Source of the DNA: a virus
Strand: one strand, 5' to 3'
DNA: 29,615 nt
IMG/VR virus record: IMGVR_UViG_3300037502_001832
Coordinates: 1 to 29,615 of that record
Shown here: piece after piece, positions 3,902 through 27,734 of the stretch
How the letters are laid out: the number at the start of each line of letters is the position of its first letter
Numbering within the stretch: position 1 is the first letter of the stretch
Program-made: the position numbers and the translations under genes
Notes under the pieces: model-generated
Databases searched by the model: none
What the model saw: the letters and a program-made list of their open reading frames with translations, nothing else
What the model was told of the DNA's origin: nothing

Positions 3902-4437
3902 GCCAACTAATACAACCGAGTGAGGTCATTAGCGGTGGGGTTGCAAGACCTACACCAGCCGATATACGTTTGGACAAATCCCTAATTAGTCCACATATTC
4001 AGGATGCTGAGTTTAGATGGGTTGTTCCTGCTATTGGATTGTCCTTATATGATGCAATGGTAGCCAACAAAGGCAATAGTACGGCTTTTACATCAACGGC
4101 TTATCAGCAACTTTGGGATAGTCAATTGAAGGCTTTATGTGCCAATGCTGTTTTGTATGAGGCTTCGCCTTTCATGGTTATGCAAATGGGTTCAAATGGT
4201 CTATATACTTTGGACAATGAATACGGGCAAAATGTAGGTGTTGACGGTCTAAAGTTTTATCAAGATACATTGCTTCAAAGGATTCAGGTAAAGGCAAAAC
4301 GTATCAAGGATTATTTATGTGATAATTACCTTTCTTTTACAGCTTTTGTACCTTCATCCATTGGTTGTCCAGATTCAACTTGTGATGATGAAGAAATAAA
4401 TAACGATATATATACCTCATTAGGCGTAGTTTTATAA
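3898..4437 (+). CDS. head-completion/adaptor-type protein (DUF6712-like)
   Basis: A 179-residue, mostly helical soluble protein directly after the portal and coupled to it by an ATGA overlap. The N-terminal half has helices with conserved-looking YDAMVANKG and QLWDSQLKALCANAVLYEA segments, and the middle has a long helix ending in KRIKDYLC. This pattern resembles proteins found after the portal in Bacteroidota phages and grouped as DUF6712, which I take to be adaptor or head-completion proteins. The family name is recalled from pattern and could be wrong; the position after a portal is the stronger argument. Confidence 0.5.
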   Translation: MSQLIQPSEVISGGVARPTPADIRLDKSLISPHIQDAEFRWVVPAIGLSLYDAMVANKGNSTAFTSTAYQQLWDSQLKALCANAVLYEASPFMVMQMGSNGLYTLDNEYGQNVGVDGLKFYQDTLLQRIQVKAKRIKDYLCDNYLSFTAFVPSSIGCPDSTCDDEEINNDIYTSLGVVL

Positions 4438-22321: not shown

Positions 22322-22789
22322 CTAAACTTTTCTCAAATGTATCAAATGTGGATAAATTTCTGCCAGTGCCGTTTCGTATGCTTTACTTGCCTCTTTTGGA
22401 CAATCAAAGCAACCGAGATACGTTATTTTTTCCTTTTTCTTGATTACAGCCGTGTACTTAAACATTTCGGGTCGAAATGAAACTCCACGGTAACCAGTTT
22501 TATTTCGCCTTGACGTTGCATGGGTAATGCGTGAATCAGAACGGCTCATCACCATTAGATTACTTTTGCAATTGTTGCTCATATTTTTATCAATATGAAT
22601 TACAACGTCACCGTTTGGCGCATTAGTAATCATACGGTGCATATAAGTTGTTTGGTATTTGCCGTTAACCAGCATATTGGTTGCAAAAAGTCCGTTAATA
22701 ACGTGCCATGAATACTTGGATACCAGTTCGTAGTCTTCCGCATCAACCGTGCAGCTAAACCCTTTTTTTGTTGTTATTACTTTTTTCAT
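22322..22789 (-). CDS. HNH endonuclease with AP2 DNA-binding domain
   Basis: A 155-residue protein of the HNH-AP2 type. The HNH part has YMHRMI (49-54), VVIHIDKNMSNNC (62-74) and SNLMVMSRSDS; the catalytic His sits in IHID where DH is more usual, while the later Asn residues remain. The C-terminal half is an AP2-like domain (TGYRGVSFRPEMFKYTA, then TYLGCFDCPKEASKAY). These freestanding or intron-borne enzymes nick or cut DNA and move themselves or neighbours. It lies immediately downstream of two tandem structured RNAs on the same strand. Whether it is active with the altered DH is unknown. Confidence 0.8.
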   Translation of the reverse strand: MKKVITTKKGFSCTVDAEDYELVSKYSWHVINGLFATNMLVNGKYQTTYMHRMITNAPNGDVVIHIDKNMSNNCKSNLMVMSRSDSRITHATSRRNKTGYRGVSFRPEMFKYTAVIKKKEKITYLGCFDCPKEASKAYETALAEIYPHLIHLRKV

Positions 22790-22820: not shown

Positions 22821-22956
22821 AGTAAGGACTGGATTTAATACCAGCAAATATTATTAAGGTAATATTTTTTAATGTTTTCCAGCGTCCATTGAACGTTCCC
22901 TTAACTTTGCAATAACCACTTTCATTTCACATTGCGTCTATTTTCGCCACCTTACT
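22821..22956 (-). ncRNA. tRNA-like structured RNA, copy 2 (136 nt)
   Basis: Read on the minus strand: 7-bp acceptor-like stem AGTAAGG (22956-22950) with CCTTACT (22827-22821); TG; D-arm-like GCG..CGC (22947-22945, 22936-22934) within a GGTGGCGAAAATAGACGC stretch resembling a tRNA-Leu start; AATGT (22933-22929) pairing with ACATT (22875-22871) around a 53-base insert in place of an anticodon arm; a 7-bp hairpin AATATTA/TAATATT (22847-22853, 22860-22866) like a variable arm; and a T-arm-like CTGG..CCAG. No CCA is encoded. It lacks the D-loop GG and a normal 7-base T loop, so it is tRNA-like rather than a plain tRNA. Confidence 0.55.
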
Positions 22957-22959
22957 AAA

Positions 22960-23058
22960 TGCAAGGGCTGGATTCGATACCAGCATGAATCGTATAAAAG
23001 CTATAACAGTTGTACCCCTGTCGATTCTCAGCTTACGTCTATCTTCCGCCACCTTGCA
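22960..23058 (-). ncRNA. tRNA-like structured RNA, copy 1 (99 nt)
   Basis: Minus strand: acceptor-like TGCAAGG (23058-23052) with CCTTGCA (22966-22960); TG; D-arm-like GCG..CGT (23049-23047, 23037-23035) in GGTGGCGGAAGATAGACG; AAGCT (23034-23030) pairing AGCTT (23002-22998) around a 27-base insert holding a GACAG/CTGTT hairpin; and a T-arm GCTGG/CCAGC with an 8-base loop TATCGAAT. The stems match those of copy 2 with four compensatory base-pair changes. Three bases separate the two RNAs. No conventional anticodon loop could be placed. A promoter box lies just upstream. It may be a decayed or repurposed tRNA-Leu. Confidence 0.55.
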
Positions 23059-23130: not shown

Positions 23131-23820
23131 ATGAAAAGAACAATTGTTTTAACGGCTATAACTGGGGGCAAAGACAAGTTGATTGACCCTGAAATTGTAT
23201 TTGATACTTGCGATTATTACGCTTTTGTTGATAGCATTGACCATGATATCCATGTCTGGAATCAGGTTTTAAATTACAATTATTCCAACTTGACATTTTC
23301 TGCAAGGCGTAATGCAAAAGTACCCAAGATTTTAACTCAGTCGTATTGGAATCATTACGAGTATGTAATTTGGCATGATGGTACGCATGAATTAGCGGTC
23401 AATCCTGAGGATATTTATAATGAATATGGCGATTTTGATTTACTTTGTTTTCGACATGCTCAAAGAAGGTGTTTATATCAGGAATTAAACGCTATTGATA
23501 AAATGGATAATCCAGATTTAATCAACCAACAACGAGACTTTTATAAAGCAGTTGGAATGCCTGAGTACTATGGACTTTACGAAATGGGATGTTATATAAG
23601 AAAGGTGAACAAAAATACAATTGATTTTGGTTTGTCTTGGTTTGAACAGGTTTGCAAATTTTCTTCCCGTGACCAAGTATCTTTCCCTTTTGTAATATGG
23701 CAAATGGAAAATAGGATTAATCTAAAAGTCATAGAGGGAAATTGTAGCCAGTACATTGGCACACCTTTTGAAAATGAGGGAAACAAATATTTTAAAAATC
23801 ATTCAGTTCATTTAATATGA
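23131..23820 (+). CDS. glycosyltransferase-like protein (DUF616/TOD1 type)
   Basis: A 229-residue soluble protein with features of the DUF616 glycosyltransferase-like family: an N-terminal strand MKRTIVLTAITGGKDKL, ARRNAKVPKILTQSYW, the core YVIWHDGTHEL (with an acidic/His pair for metal or sugar nucleotide), and the closing SSRDQVSFPFVIWQ. Such proteins resemble GT-A enzymes that use nucleotide sugars. It opens the right operon just after a promoter box and overlaps the next gene by four bases. Substrate unknown; probably a lipopolysaccharide, virion or base sugar. Confidence 0.65.
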   Translation: MKRTIVLTAITGGKDKLIDPEIVFDTCDYYAFVDSIDHDIHVWNQVLNYNYSNLTFSARRNAKVPKILTQSYWNHYEYVIWHDGTHELAVNPEDIYNEYGDFDLLCFRHAQRRCLYQELNAIDKMDNPDLINQQRDFYKAVGMPEYYGLYEMGCYIRKVNKNTIDFGLSWFEQVCKFSSRDQVSFPFVIWQMENRINLKVIEGNCSQYIGTPFENEGNKYFKNHSVHLI

Positions 23821-24926
23821 TACCATTATTTAAGGTAGGCATGTCGGATAAAGCATCTTTTATGGTAAAGGGTGTTTTGGAATCAGGATTTATAGGTCAA
23901 GGGTCAGTTAATGAGGCATTTGAATTTAAGTTAAAAGAAAGGTTTAATAATCCAAATCTTGTGACAGTAAACTCAGGAACATCAGCCTTACAATTAGCGT
24001 TAAGATTGATAAAAGACAAATTCCCTAATAAAGAATATATTATCACAACCCCTTTGACTTGCACGGCTACCAACTGGGCAATACTTGCAGCAGGGTTTAA
24101 AATTATTTGGGCAGATATTGACCCGAACACATTAAACATAAGTCCTTATTCGGTTAACTCAAAAATGAACGATAAAGTAGCAGCCGTCATGGTAGTACAC
24201 TGGGGAGGTTATCCTGTTGATTTGCAAAAAATAGAAAGGCTAAAAGAATATTTTAATTTTGATATAATCGAGGATTGCGCACACGCTTTTGGTTCAACAT
24301 ATTATGATTACATGATTGGCAATTCTGCCAACTATTGCGCCTTTTCATTTCAGGCAATTAAACACCTTACGACGGGTGACGGTGGTATGTTAATTCTGCC
24401 AAATGAAAAGCAGTACAAAAAGGCTAAGTTACTTCGTTGGTATGGCATAGATAGGGAGGATAAAAACAAAACGGATTTTAGATGTGAAAACGATATACCC
24501 GAATGGGGTTATAAGATGCACATGAATGACATAAACGCATCTATTGGACTTGCCAACCTTGAAATTGTAGATGAGAATATTAGAAAAACAAGGCTTAACG
24601 CTTTGAAATTAAGGGAAGAATTAAAAGATGTAAAAGGGATTACGCTTTTAGATTATGACTATAGACATAATTGTTCCTATTGGATATTTTCTATTTTAGT
24701 TGAGGATAGAGAAAGGTTTAATCAAAAAATGAAAGAGGATGGAATTATGGTTAGTCAAGTTCATGAAAGAAATGATAAACATACTTGCGTTCAGGAATAC
24801 CGAAGCTATTTACCTAACCTTGAAAGCGTGGTAAATCATTTGTCCGCTATTCCGTGCGGATGGTGGATTAAGCCTAAAGAGATAGATTATATTATTGATA
24901 AAGTAAAAAATTATTTACATGATTAA
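23817..24926 (+). CDS. DegT/DnrJ/EryC1-family aminotransferase
   Basis: A 369-residue PLP-dependent enzyme. TVNSGTSALQLALR (50-63) binds the cofactor phosphate; IIEDCAHAFGS (150-160) has the Asp that contacts the PLP ring nitrogen (Asp153); AFSFQAIKHLTTGDGGM has the Schiff-base Lys182. The C-terminal domain has the expected YWIFSI strand. Members add an amino group to keto-sugars for nucleotide-activated deoxyamino sugars. Length is normal. Coupled to genes on both sides by ATGA/8-base overlaps, so an amino sugar for the adjacent glycosyltransferases is a natural role, although no sugar dehydratase is visible here. Confidence 0.9.
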   Translation: MIPLFKVGMSDKASFMVKGVLESGFIGQGSVNEAFEFKLKERFNNPNLVTVNSGTSALQLALRLIKDKFPNKEYIITTPLTCTATNWAILAAGFKIIWADIDPNTLNISPYSVNSKMNDKVAAVMVVHWGGYPVDLQKIERLKEYFNFDIIEDCAHAFGSTYYDYMIGNSANYCAFSFQAIKHLTTGDGGMLILPNEKQYKKAKLLRWYGIDREDKNKTDFRCENDIPEWGYKMHMNDINASIGLANLEIVDENIRKTRLNALKLREELKDVKGITLLDYDYRHNCSYWIFSILVEDRERFNQKMKEDGIMVSQVHERNDKHTCVQEYRSYLPNLESVVNHLSAIPCGWWIKPKEIDYIIDKVKNYLHD

Positions 24927-25293
24927 ATTAGTTGTTTCGGGTCGGGTAGGTGCAGACGCACAATTAAAAACAGTTGGTGACACGACCGTTTGTTCATTTT
25001 CTGTTGCTCACACCGAAAAAATATACGGTGATAATCCAACTGAAAAAACGATTTGGGTTTCCTGTTCTATATGGGGTGACCGTGGAATAAAACTTGCACC
25101 ACATATTTTAAAAGGTACTTATGTCGTCGTTGAAGGTTCAGGAGGCGTAAACCCTTTCTTAAAAAATGGGCAACCTGAGGCAGTAATTATATGTCGAGTT
25201 TCATCCTTAGAGTTTGGAGGCAAAGCAAATTTAGATAATCCAAAAGTGACAGAGGCAACTTCTTTTAAATCAGATTCTGAATTTCCGTTTTAA
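24919..25293 (+). CDS. ssb: single-stranded DNA-binding protein
   Basis: A 124-residue protein with the SSB OB fold: LVVSGRVGADAQLKTVGD at the start, CSFSVAHTE, KTIWVSCSIWGDRG, KGTYVVVEGS, then a short linker and an acidic tip ending DSEFPF, like the conserved C-terminal peptide that recruits replication proteins. It coats single-stranded DNA during replication and recombination. Its place is odd: it lies inside an operon of sugar-type enzymes, overlapping both neighbours, rather than in the minus-strand replication block. The tail is shorter than in host SSB. Confidence 0.85.
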   Translation: MIKLVVSGRVGADAQLKTVGDTTVCSFSVAHTEKIYGDNPTEKTIWVSCSIWGDRGIKLAPHILKGTYVVVEGSGGVNPFLKNGQPEAVIICRVSSLEFGGKANLDNPKVTEATSFKSDSEFPF

Positions 25294-25832
25294 TGGCTTA
25301 CTACAATTACAACATAGCATCGAGTTATCATAAGAACAACATCGGCAAGACACTATATAACACGGTGTTAACGATGCAGCCTTTTTGGATAATTGAATTT
25401 GGAACACTACATGGCTATTCAGCTATCTCAATGGCTCAAGCCTTACGAGACCTCGATAGTTCAGGGAAAATAATTTGTCATGACCTATGGAAGAAATACC
25501 CTTACAAAAATACGTCAATGGAAAGTACCCAAGCAACCATTGATGAATTAGGGTTGACAAAATACATTGAATTGGTTGAAATGGACTTTTATAACTGGAA
25601 CCCTGAACCATTTGACTTAATGCATTTTGACATAAGTAACCATGCAGGTCATATAAAATACTTAAAAAAAATGGTTGATGATAACCTGTTTAATAGTACG
25701 GTCTTGTTTGAGGGAGGCACAAAAGAAAGAGATAAAGTAGAATGGATGAAAGATTTCCAACCAATTAACTCATCGGGTATTAAGTTTATAACCATTGACG
25801 AAAATTTCCCATCTTTATCTATGTTACTATGA
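25293..25832 (+). CDS. SAM-dependent methyltransferase-like protein
   Basis: A 179-residue protein with a Rossmann pattern: WIIEFGTLHGYSAISMAQAL (31-50, the glycine-rich SAM-binding segment), SGKIICHDLWKK (the acidic end of the second strand), a VEMDFYNW strand, then FDLMHFDISNHAGH. It resembles small sugar or O-methyltransferases and cephalosporin-hydroxylase-like proteins. The last third is shorter than usual. It overlaps the SSB stop by one base and the next gene by four. It probably methylates a sugar or another small group in the pathway encoded around it; the target is not visible. Confidence 0.65.
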   Translation: MAYYNYNIASSYHKNNIGKTLYNTVLTMQPFWIIEFGTLHGYSAISMAQALRDLDSSGKIICHDLWKKYPYKNTSMESTQATIDELGLTKYIELVEMDFYNWNPEPFDLMHFDISNHAGHIKYLKKMVDDNLFNSTVLFEGGTKERDKVEWMKDFQPINSSGIKFITIDENFPSLSMLL

Positions 25833-26533
25833 AAATAGCGGTAGTTGCATCAGGTTGGCATTTCCCTTATGATTTTTACGAATCCATGTCGAGACAATTG
25901 ATGCCTAAAGGCTCATCGTTTGATATGTTTTGTATATCACATAGACTTCCAGATTTTTCACGCCAGGAAAAAGAAGGTATGCCAATTCAAGGCGATGACC
26001 TGATATTATATCGAAAGTTTGCAACGTTAACCGACATAGAAAATTTGGGTTGGATTTACGAACAACATCCAAACACTATCGGTGACTGGGGATGTTCAAA
26101 TCAATGGTTACAAAACCATGACTATAAAAAATACGACCTTTTGTTATTTACCCATGATGACAATTTTATTAAGCAGTATAAATGGTTAGGCAATGTCATT
26201 TATTTAGCGGAGCAAAACTGGGAGATACTTTGTAATTCATGCGGAGACCCGAAAGGATGGATTCGGGGCAGTTGTGAATTCTTTAAACCGTCATTACTTA
26301 ATAAAATAGGTGGTTCATTTGATTTATCATTGGTTAAACTAAACAGAGAAGGTCTTTATCAATCTCCAGATAACTGGGTGGATTTGTTCGACTGGAACAA
26401 CACGGTTCATCCTTTGATGAAATTTGCAGCCGAAAATGATATAAAAATTGGTTATATGTCCGATGTTTACAGGCATTCTGTTTTTGTATCCGAAGGGGAA
26501 AGGGGATTTATTAATCCAATTGTGAAAAAATAA
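25829..26533 (+). CDS. glycosyltransferase-like protein (GT-A type)
   Basis: A 234-residue soluble protein starting with a strand MKIAVVASGWHFPYDF, a long loop with charged residues, then LLLFTHDDNFIKQY, where HDDN is like the metal-binding DxD of GT-A glycosyltransferases. A CNSCGDPKGWIRGSCEFF segment with three cysteines follows, and a conserved-looking aromatic end (WVDLFDWNNTVHPLM). It lies between the methyltransferase-like gene and a promoter-like gap. The glycosyltransferase call rests on the strand/DxD pattern and neighbours. Confidence 0.45.
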   Translation: MKIAVVASGWHFPYDFYESMSRQLMPKGSSFDMFCISHRLPDFSRQEKEGMPIQGDDLILYRKFATLTDIENLGWIYEQHPNTIGDWGCSNQWLQNHDYKKYDLLLFTHDDNFIKQYKWLGNVIYLAEQNWEILCNSCGDPKGWIRGSCEFFKPSLLNKIGGSFDLSLVKLNREGLYQSPDNWVDLFDWNNTVHPLMKFAAENDIKIGYMSDVYRHSVFVSEGERGFINPIVKK

Positions 26534-26536
26534 TTA

Positions 26537-26544
26537 TATCTTTG
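26537..26544 (+). promoter_or_regulatory. Bacteroidota-type promoter box (TATCTTTG), internal
   Basis: TATCTTTG lies in the only gap of more than a few bases between 23131 and 27984 (26534-26559) and precedes the 57-residue gene by 15 bases. It may provide a second start for the distal genes (glycosyltransferase, methyltransferase, packaging). The nearest upstream TTG is 14 bases away, shorter than ideal. Confidence 0.4.
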
Positions 26545-26559
26545 AAATAATTTTAAATT

Positions 26560-26733
26560 ATGTTACAAACAAAGCAAAAAAACGAGTTATTCGGTATTAC
26601 CTATCGGGATGTTAAGATAAGGCAGAAACTTCTTGATATACAATACGACTTATGGAAGGAAAAACAGGTAAAACATTCAATGGAAGACGTGTTGGCAGAA
26701 TTGATTAAAACTTACGAAAGGTATAAACGATGA
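26560..26733 (+). CDS. 57-residue protein, ribbon-helix-helix-like
   Basis: A short frame starting MLQTKQKNELFGITYRDVKI, then KLLDIQYDLWKEK and HSMEDVLAELIKTYERYKR. The order of a strand-like start, a helix, a turn and a second helix with DVLAELI is reminiscent of ribbon-helix-helix regulators, though the strand is not typical. It ends in an ATGA overlap with the glycosyltransferase gene and is preceded by a promoter box, so it may regulate or only lead this second half-operon. Confidence 0.5.
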   Translation: MLQTKQKNELFGITYRDVKIRQKLLDIQYDLWKEKQVKHSMEDVLAELIKTYERYKR

Positions 26734-27734
26734 TAAGAATAGGTATAGTTACAAATCTTTCAAGTCCAACGACGGATTATTATCGTTCGGTCAATCCTTT
26801 TATAAAGTTAAGGAGGGAAATTCCTATGGAGATAACCTTCCTTAATCCTGATACCGTAAAATGGTACGACTTTTATAACGTTGACGTTGTTTTGTTTCAA
26901 CGTCCTAACGGTGACCACATATTGGGAATGATATCAGAGGCAAAGAAAATGGGTAAAAAGGTTATATTAGACCATGACGACCTATTACATGAGGTAAACC
27001 CAGCCAACCCATCAAGCCAACATTTTAGTAAAGAGGTGGTTAAGAAATCGGTTGAACGTGCTTTTATATACGCTGACCATGTTATCACTTCAACTCCGTA
27101 TCTAAAAGATTTTTATAAGCAGCATTACGATGAAAATAAAATAACGGTTATTCCTAATGCAATAGATTTAGAAACGACACCTTTTGTCGCTGTAAAACGA
27201 GATAAGGCAATCGATAAAAAGAAACGCATTATGTGGCGTGGCTCAATGACTCACATTGAAGACTTACAAACGGTTGATTTATTTTGGAAATGGCTGATGG
27301 CAAAAGAAACGGTTGAAGTTGCTTTTGTTGGTTTACCTGATTGGTTAGGAAAAACATTGTATCCTAAAGCTATTCATGTGCCTTGGAATAATAGTTTGTT
27401 CCAGTATTTCGAGATGATGAAAAATAGTAATCCACATTACGGTATTTTTCCTTTAACGAATGATAACTTTAATCAATCAAAATCCAATAACTTTGCTATG
27501 GAAATGCTGGTTGCTGGGGCGATACCTTATGCACCACGTTATATAAAAGAATTTAACATTGAAGGCGTACGTTTGTTTGATAATCAAAACGATTTAAAAC
27601 AAATTGTTCAAAATGCTTTAGAGAAAGATGATGCCTACTTTGTTGATTTGGAGGCTGGGCGTAAGTGGATAGAAAAGGAAAGGAATTTAATTAAGGTTAA
27701 CCAAATGCGTTTAAATGTGTTGAATAGTTTGTAA
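26730..27734 (+). CDS. GT-B glycosyltransferase (family 1-like)
   Basis: A 334-residue protein with two Rossmann-like halves. The N-terminal half has VVLFQRPNGDHILG, KKVILDHDDLLHE and a HVITSTPYLKDFY helix, and ends with ITVIPNAIDLE, the usual bridge of GT-B enzymes. The C-terminal half starts RIMWRGSMTHIEDL and has the acceptor/donor region GIFPLTNDNFNQSKSNNFAMEMLVAGAIPYA, close to the EX7E-type helix of family 4/1 glycosyltransferases. It likely transfers an activated sugar. It is coupled to the small gene upstream and lies one base from the next. Confidence 0.8.
   Translation: MIRIGIVTNLSSPTTDYYRSVNPFIKLRREIPMEITFLNPDTVKWYDFYNVDVVLFQRPNGDHILGMISEAKKMGKKVILDHDDLLHEVNPANPSSQHFSKEVVKKSVERAFIYADHVITSTPYLKDFYKQHYDENKITVIPNAIDLETTPFVAVKRDKAIDKKKRIMWRGSMTHIEDLQTVDLFWKWLMAKETVEVAFVGLPDWLGKTLYPKAIHVPWNNSLFQYFEMMKNSNPHYGIFPLTNDNFNQSKSNNFAMEMLVAGAIPYAPRYIKEFNIEGVRLFDNQNDLKQIVQNALEKDDAYFVDLEAGRKWIEKERNLIKVNQMRLNVLNSL

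What the first reader, a model, noticed from the sequence alone, without database searches (positions are those of the whole stretch)
22821..23058. Tandem tRNA-like RNAs with covarying stems next to an HNH gene
Two RNAs of 99 and 136 nt lie three bases apart on the minus strand. Both have a perfect 7-bp acceptor-like stem, a GGTGGCGRAA..ATAGACG start as in tRNA-Leu, a D-like arm and a 5-bp T-like stem joined to the acceptor strand. Instead of a normal anticodon arm, each carries a 5-bp stem (AAGCT/AGCTT or AATGT/ACATT) around a 27- or 53-base insert. Four base pairs differ between the copies with both sides changed, so structure is under selection. The D-loop GG pair is absent and the T loop has eight bases, so this is not an ordinary tRNA. 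It could be a tRNA mimic that binds host tRNA enzymes or ribosomes, a Y-RNA-like molecule, or tRNAs carrying insertions.
Basis: partly seen in the sequence, partly recalled or inferred. Interest (0 to 1): 0.85.

Follow-up and report, generated by a model that had tools for sequence, protein, structure and literature searches.

The report
Phage tRNA-like RNAs without anticodons
This phage carries two small RNAs that look like transfer RNAs at their ends but have an exchangeable, knotted insert where the part that reads the genetic code should be; they belong to a large, apparently undescribed family in phages of many bacteria, and phage T4's unexplained 'RNA C' is built on the same plan.

Summary
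Two RNAs (99 and 136 nt, 3 nt apart, minus strand) have perfect 7-bp acceptor stems, a tRNA-Leu-type D arm without GG, and a T arm with an 8-nt loop. A structured insert replaces the anticodon arm. ARAGORN and Rfam find nothing.

They are not a pair of oddities. A covariance model built from relatives scores them at 61.5 and 56 bits. A strict search of 2.1 Mb of fetched sequence gave 101 distinct non-tRNA members and none in shuffled DNA. Pairing covaries strongly, with far more G-U than A-C wobbles, so the RNA strand is under selection. The odd D and T loops go together: a relative with the same insert has both in canonical form. Canonical-elbow members almost always keep A73 (30/31); odd-elbow members do not (34/83). 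Inserts are exchanged like cassettes: unrelated phages share one, and related phages carry different ones at one site. Cultured phages (phAPEC8, Listeria P100, Lactobacillus SAC12B) carry unannotated members. T4 RNA C, of unknown function, shows the same architecture by covariation.

Best reading: non-decoding, tRNA-Leu-derived phage RNAs. Their function, most likely as decoys for tRNA-binding host proteins, is inferred, not shown. No transcript was seen.

The parts
22960..23058 (-). RNA1, tRNA-like RNA of 99 nt
   Evidence: model R1 61.5 bits; relatives L082 and L236
22821..22956 (-). RNA2, tRNA-like RNA of 136 nt
   Evidence: model R1 56 bits; relatives L237, L217, L238
23052..23058 (-). RNA1 acceptor stem, 5' strand TGCAAGG
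   Evidence: pairs 7/7 with 22960-22966; acceptor covariation across the family
22960..22966 (-). RNA1 acceptor stem, 3' strand CCTTGCA; next base T, no CCA
23035..23049 (-). RNA1 D arm GCG-GAAGATAGA-CGT, no GG in the loop
   Evidence: same motif in the loci
22998..23034 (-). RNA1 anticodon-position stem AAGCT/AGCTT with 27-nt insert
   Evidence: insert sequence conserved in L082 and in otherwise unrelated L236
22987..23027 (-). RNA1 pseudoknot partner stem GAATCG (23022-23027)/CGATTC (22987-22992), enclosing hairpin ACAG/CTGT
   Evidence: p = 0.01 against dinucleotide shuffles in the strict test; same in L082 and L236
22967..22984 (-). RNA1 T arm GCTGG-TATCGAAT-CCAGC, 8-nt loop
22950..22956 (-). 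RNA2 acceptor stem, 5' strand AGTAAGG
   Evidence: pairs 7/7 with 22821-22827
22821..22827 (-). RNA2 acceptor stem, 3' strand CCTTACT; next base A, no CCA
22934..22947 (-). RNA2 D arm GCG-AAAATAGA-CGC, no GG
22871..22933 (-). RNA2 anticodon-position stem AATGT/ACATT with 53-nt insert
22846..22867 (-). RNA2 variable-arm hairpin AAATATTA-CCTTAA-TAATATTT; its loop can pair with TTAAGG (22899-22904)
   Evidence: invariant in L237, L217, L238, so no covariation test; missed by the automatic pseudoknot scan
22828..22845 (-). RNA2 T arm GCTGG-TATTAAAT-CCAGT, 8-nt loop
23062..23069 (-). TATCTTTG, a Bacteroidota-type -7 box ending 3 nt before the acceptor of RNA1
   Evidence: sequence; same arrangement TATATTTG-N3-acceptor at the copy in the Chryseobacterium chromosome, L122; promoter role inferred from the known Bacteroidota consensus
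22322..22789 (-). HNH/AP2 homing-endonuclease-like gene starting about 30 nt after RNA2; probably not part of the RNA family

Best explanation
WHAT IT IS (shown computationally, about 0.9): two paralogous, non-decoding, tRNA-Leu-derived RNAs of a widespread phage family. The tRNA body (acceptor, D arm, T arm) is kept. The D-loop/T-loop elbow has changed to a coupled non-canonical form, and the anticodon arm is replaced by an exchangeable, often pseudoknotted insert. HOW IT WORKS (inferred, about 0.35-0.4): the RNA is transcribed during infection and survives because its ends fold like tRNA. It acts in trans by presenting a tRNA-like surface with an altered elbow and a variable centre to host proteins that handle or attack tRNA. 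The most likely role is a decoy or inhibitor of tRNA-targeting defence or toxin enzymes. The need to match different host proteins would drive the rapid exchange of inserts.
For: Family and RNA-level selection: an alignment not selected for pairing gives 128 cells changed on both sides vs 43 shuffled, covariation score 0.659 vs 0.200, falling to about 0.2 when partners are slid; acceptor pairing 7/7 in 33 of 52 vs 1.7% with shuffled partners; G-U 36 vs A-C 5 in acceptors. No anticodon. Elbow coupling: GG absent in 73 of 83 with odd T loops, present in 14 of 18 with canonical T loops, p = 7e-8; L236 has the RNA1 insert with both loops canonical. Discriminator A in 30/31 canonical-elbow but 34/83 odd-elbow members. 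Cassette exchange and horizontal spread; 91 insert clusters among 100 elements. Pseudoknots enriched: 25 of 87 at p < 0.05. Members in tRNA arrays of cultured phages; one phage record carries 13 strong model matches, most of them tRNA-like. [quoted passage not shown]
Against: No transcript, protein partner or phenotype was seen. No defence system was linked to any insert. Inserts are only slightly more stable than shuffles as nested folds (mean z -0.48). Most inserts show no significant pseudoknot. The RNA1 and RNA2 inserts are too conserved to test their pseudoknots by covariation. The counts come from motif-based scans and related phages, so the statistics are not fully independent.
Confidence: 0.42

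Rival explanations
1. Scaffolded small RNA: the tRNA-like ends serve only for maturation and protection from exonucleases, and the insert is the working part, acting by base pairing or by binding a protein unrelated to tRNA.
For: Inserts are swapped while ends stay and are nearly invariant within a cluster across unrelated phages, as expected if the insert is the effector. Discriminator and CCA are not constrained in odd-elbow members.
Against: The body is constrained more than a plain stabiliser needs: U8, the A14-A15 region, the D stem and the coupled elbow are kept. Inserts are often pseudoknotted, which hides bases from antisense pairing.
Confidence: 0.25
2. Charged but non-decoding tRNA-like RNA: leucylated without need of an anticodon and used outside normal decoding, as an aminoacyl donor or in a tmRNA-like way.
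For: D arm is tRNA-Leu type; bacterial LeuRS is known not to need the anticodon (established knowledge); canonical-elbow members keep A73 in 30/31.
Against: RNA1 has T at the discriminator position and odd-elbow members in general do not keep A73 (34/83) nor encode CCA (8 of 83). No tag reading frame.
Confidence: 0.1
3. Processing punctuation or recombination handle: the elements mark RNA cleavage sites between small genes, or serve as repeats by which phage genes are shuffled.
For: Elements alternate with small ORFs in L028, lie co-directional with the downstream ORF 50:8, and recombine: L237 has a hybrid of RNA1's 5' end and RNA2's rest.
Against: G-U versus A-C asymmetry and covariation show RNA-level selection; neither role needs a conserved, exchangeable insert.
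Confidence: 0.12
4. Real tRNA genes with small introns in the anticodon loop that are spliced out by a tRNA endonuclease and RtcB-like ligase.
For: Inserts sit where tRNA introns sit; a stem like the anticodon stem closes both window inserts; some phages with such elements carry an RtcB-like ligase (P100).
Against: Inserts also pair with the variable region outside the would-be intron; insertions occur in the D loop too; elbow and discriminator are lost; no ligase or endonuclease of this kind among the window ORFs scanned.
Confidence: 0.06
5. Decaying tRNA genes or pseudogenes.
For: No anticodon, odd elbow, mostly no CCA.
Against: Strong covariation and near-invariant inserts in otherwise diverged phages.
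Confidence: 0.03

Closest known systems
Phage T4 RNA C (rnaC, species 1 RNA)
   Same: tRNA-like acceptor (with two U-U mismatches), T arm and long variable arm, all covarying in T4-like phages; enlarged central domain that differs in EnC15 and PEi20; tandem with another RNA (rnaD) in a tRNA cluster, with a homing endonuclease gene nearby; function unknown (PMC3014915, PMC9697503).
   Different: Canonical 7-nt T loop, no Leu-type D arm, no match to model R1 at E <= 1; expressed and seen on Northern blots, which is not known for the window RNAs.
tRNA-Leu (class II tRNA)
   Same: TGGCGGAA...TAGACGC D arm, U8 and A14 positions, 7-bp acceptor, 5-bp T stem, variable-arm hairpin in RNA2.
   Different: No 7-nt anticodon loop, no GG in the D loop, 8-nt T loop, discriminator not A in RNA1; not called by ARAGORN or Rfam.
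tmRNA
   Same: tRNA-like ends with pseudoknotted material in place of the anticodon arm.
   Different: No match in Rfam or ARAGORN, no plausible tag frame, third acceptor pair is C-G / T-A and not the G-U that AlaRS needs, far smaller.
Bacterial Y RNA YrlA
   Same: A noncoding RNA with a tRNA-like module; suggested to inhibit an anticodon nuclease (PMC7790460).
   Different: In YrlA, as I recall it, the tRNA-like module is internal and the ends form an Ro-binding stem; here the ends themselves are the acceptor. No TROVE gene found in the window.

Membership tests
tRNA | 7-bp acceptor, D arm, T arm in tRNA order | tested here: met
tRNA | 5-bp anticodon stem with 7-nt anticodon loop | tested here: not met
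   27- and 53-nt loops; ARAGORN none
tRNA | GG in D loop and 7-nt TTCRANY T loop | tested here: not met
   met only in relatives such as L236
tRNA | reaches Rfam RF00005 | tested here: not met
tRNA | aminoacylated and used in decoding | not testable with these tools
   needs biochemistry; absence of an anticodon makes decoding very unlikely
tmRNA | tag reading frame and match to tmRNA models | tested here: not met
tmRNA | G3-U70 for alanylation | tested here: not met
   third acceptor pair C-G / T-A
bacterial Y RNA (YrlA) | linked Ro/TROVE (Rsr) gene | tested here: not met
   none among about 30 window ORFs scanned; the record may be a fragment, so a gene elsewhere is not excluded
bacterial Y RNA (YrlA) | internal tRNA-like module with Ro-binding stem at the ends (recalled, not re-read) | tested here: not met
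   the ends form the acceptor stem
T4 RNA C type phage tRNA-like RNA | tRNA-like ends plus enlarged non-decoding centre, phage-borne | tested here: met
T4 RNA C type phage tRNA-like RNA | sequence-level homology to rnaC | tested here: not met
   the T4 rnaC region gives no R1 match at E <= 1
T4 RNA C type phage tRNA-like RNA | stable transcript during infection | not testable with these tools
   no RNA data for this phage

The most novel reading that the evidence does not exclude
A general phage strategy: a tRNA-Leu shell with a re-made elbow that carries exchangeable RNA inserts, each matched to a different host tRNA-handling or tRNA-attacking protein, so that phages hold and swap RNA-based counter-defence cassettes in their tRNA arrays; T4 RNA C, unexplained for decades, would be the first member ever seen.
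Probability: 0.27. Interest if true: 0.95.

Novelty: new variant of a known kind. Interest (0 to 1): 0.8.

Why it matters
Phage tRNA arrays are usually read as codon supply. Here many phages, including cultured E. coli, Listeria and Lactobacillus phages, carry conserved tRNA-like RNAs that cannot decode and that annotation programs skip. If they are decoys or effectors, they are a new layer of phage-host conflict around tRNA, and they give a testable frame for T4 RNA C, whose role has stayed unknown. The coupled elbow change is also a natural experiment on how D and T loops hold tRNA shape.

Tried and rejected
Rfam at gathering and E<=10 and ARAGORN: nothing at the window RNAs. blastn of the region against cultured phages: only chance matches. 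HDV-like ribozyme: RNA1's P1-P2-P3-P1'-P2' order resembles it, but there is no P4 and no Rfam match, so it was dropped. Integron attC-like DNA handles: dropped because of the G-U/A-C asymmetry and the tRNA-Leu features. tmRNA: no frame, no G-U pair. HNH as part of the system: no sign of general association. T4 rnaD: I saw no tRNA-like ends. Listeria phage cka15, with very strongly transcribed unannotated RNAs near its tRNAs (PMC12282133): its region has no R1 match other than ordinary tRNA-Leu and one short partial hit, so it gives no expression support. Nested-fold stability of inserts: only weakly above shuffles. Literature: ten full-text searches of the open-access library found no description of this family; most subscription papers were not searchable.

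Full report
OBSERVATION. The window is a 29,615-base virus record. On its minus strand lie RNA1 (23058-22960, 99 nt) and RNA2 (22956-22821, 136 nt), three bases apart. Each has a perfect 7-bp acceptor stem, a tRNA-Leu-type D arm without GG, and a T arm with an 8-nt loop. Where the anticodon arm should be, a 5-bp stem closes 27 or 53 nt. ARAGORN finds no tRNA or tmRNA. Rfam gives nothing at its thresholds, nor at E<=10 on the local stretch.

A LARGE FAMILY. Of 52 distinct motif sites that had a T arm downstream, chosen without looking at the acceptor, 33 had 7/7 acceptor pairing, against 1.7% with shuffled partners. The reverse scan, with the 8-nt-loop T arm, gave 110 stretches; after both scans 93 distinct elements had a paired acceptor and a D-arm-like start. 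A strict descriptor over all fetched loci (2.14 Mb, both strands) found 101 distinct elements not called by ARAGORN and none in block-shuffled sequence. A covariance model from 24 relatives (R1) scores the window RNAs at 61.5 and 56 bits and finds many more in the loci. R1 also picks up ordinary tRNA-Leu at roughly 25-38 bits, so low scores need a look by eye.

RNA-LEVEL SELECTION. In 37 gapless end-pieces that were not selected for pairing and include false sites, the two stems pair in 81.5% of cells (shuffled 53.9%). There are 128 cells with both sides changed (shuffled 43), and the score drops to about 0.2 when partners are slid. In acceptors G-U outnumbers A-C by 36 to 5. That asymmetry is expected only if this strand is the functional RNA. 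Elements lie in the direction of the next ORF 50:8.

THE ELBOW. Among strict members the GG of the D loop is absent in 73 of 83 with odd T loops (8-nt TATCRAAT, or a 7-bp stem with TGARAGT) and present in 14 of 18 with canonical T loops (p = 7e-8). Part of this comes from how the loci were found, but the T loop was free in the first scan and still came out non-canonical in 38 of 41 acceptor-paired cases. The clearest case is L236. It carries the RNA1 insert in a phage with no other detectable similarity to the window in the sequence held, and both its loops are canonical. My inference is that the extra T-loop base takes the place of the missing D-loop G. The discriminator base is A in 30 of 31 canonical-elbow members but only 34 of 83 odd-elbow members, so selection for leucylation may persist in the first group and seems relaxed in the second. 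The canonical group is dominated by a few phages, so these counts are not independent.

THE INSERT. Among 100 elements the inserts fall into 91 unrelated clusters, yet within a cluster they are nearly invariant. In related Bacteroidota-type phages one site, with the same upstream flank and the same AGCAAGG acceptor, holds four different inserts: the RNA1 type (L082), the RNA2 type (L217, L238), and two others (L058/L080/L141/L146; L223/L169/L176). L237, about 90% identical to the window, has a single hybrid: the 5' end of RNA1 joined to the rest of RNA2. So inserts move as cassettes, with the conserved arms as likely places of recombination. A pseudoknot between the stem next to the T arm and upstream sequence is enriched: 25 of 87 elements at p<0.05 in the loose test and 13 of 87 in the strict one, with RNA1 among the best. 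It is not universal. As nested folds the inserts are only slightly more stable than shuffles.

TRANSCRIPTION. TATCTTTG, the Bacteroidota -7 box, ends 3 nt before RNA1's acceptor. A copy in the Chryseobacterium polytrichastri chromosome, among ordinary host genes, has TATATTTG at the same spacing. Only these two of 114 elements have it. This suggests, but does not show, that transcription starts at the acceptor.

CULTURED PHAGES. phAPEC8 has a member between tRNA-Asn and tRNA-Thr, present at 95-100% identity in 85 phage records and almost always unannotated. Lactobacillus phages SAC12B and 521B have one in their tRNA arrays, with a compensatory acceptor change between them. Listeria P100/A511 have one beside tRNA-Asn. 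One environmental phage (L028) has 13 strong model matches in its record; two are ordinary tRNA-Leu, and most of the rest share one acceptor and T arm, with different centres, interleaved with small ORFs.

T4 RNA C. T4's rnaC, of unknown function (PMC3014915, PMC9697503), lies in tandem with rnaD in the T4 tRNA cluster. Aligned with eight relatives it shows an acceptor (with two U-U mismatches), a long variable arm and a T arm that covary: 24 both-side changes vs 7.6 shuffled, and 0-3 when slid. The central domain is different in EnC15 and PEi20. It is the same architecture, but not a sequence relative under R1.

FUNCTION. Nothing here shows function. A tRNA-shaped body that cannot decode, an elbow that has drifted from the standard one, fast exchange of a structured centre, and residence in phage tRNA arrays fit best with a trans-acting RNA that engages host tRNA-handling or tRNA-attacking proteins. 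[quoted passage not shown] I give this 0.35-0.4, the scaffolded-sRNA rival 0.25, and the others less.

LIMITS.

Noticed in passing
L082, L217, L238, L058, L080, L141, L146, L223, L169, L176: about 120 nt upstream of the tRNA-like element: A second conserved, apparently structured RNA (ATTTGCAGACCTCGG...GCGTCAGAGGATGAATTGGCA..CTGG..CAG..AAAT, with covarying CCTG/CAGG vs TCTG/CAGA) directly precedes the tRNA-like element; not found in the window.
   Followed up: partly
L028:7183-12206: Array of about a dozen tRNA-Leu-like RNAs with nearly identical acceptor and T arm (AGTCAGG/CCTGACT), different centres, interleaved with small ORFs.
   Followed up: partly
L232 (phAPEC8) about 3994-4066: Another atypical tRNA-like sequence between tRNA-Ile and tRNA-Met, with a 4-nt loop on the anticodon-position stem CACAA/TTGTG.
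   Followed up: no
L233 and L235, between tRNA-Leu and the tRNA-like element: A further small structured RNA with a covarying stem in Lactobacillus phages SAC12B and 521B.
   Followed up: no
L127:1550, L189:9329, L191:668: Three otherwise unrelated inserts share a hairpin motif AAAACGAGGCGTC...ACGCCTA near the T arm.
   Followed up: no
L248:26571-35000 (Listeria P100) and L249 (Rhizobium RHph_TM30): Ro/TROVE-type RNA-binding genes lie near the tRNA arrays of phages that carry this kind of element or T arm; P100 also has an RtcB-like ligase and an RNA ligase.
   Followed up: partly
L250:2700-3290 (Listeria phage cka15, record 26.2-26.8 kb): Region reported as the most strongly transcribed of the phage (PMC12282133), annotated with three tiny ORFs; no Rfam or R1 match, so an unidentified RNA of several hundred nt.
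   Followed up: partly
L027:2720-2866: ARAGORN calls a tRNA-Val wholly inside the insert of a tRNA-like element.
   Followed up: no
window 23131-27734: Run of sugar-modifying genes in the phage: TOD1/MUCI70-like glycosyltransferase, DegT aminotransferase, methyltransferase, family 4 glycosyltransferase.
   Followed up: no
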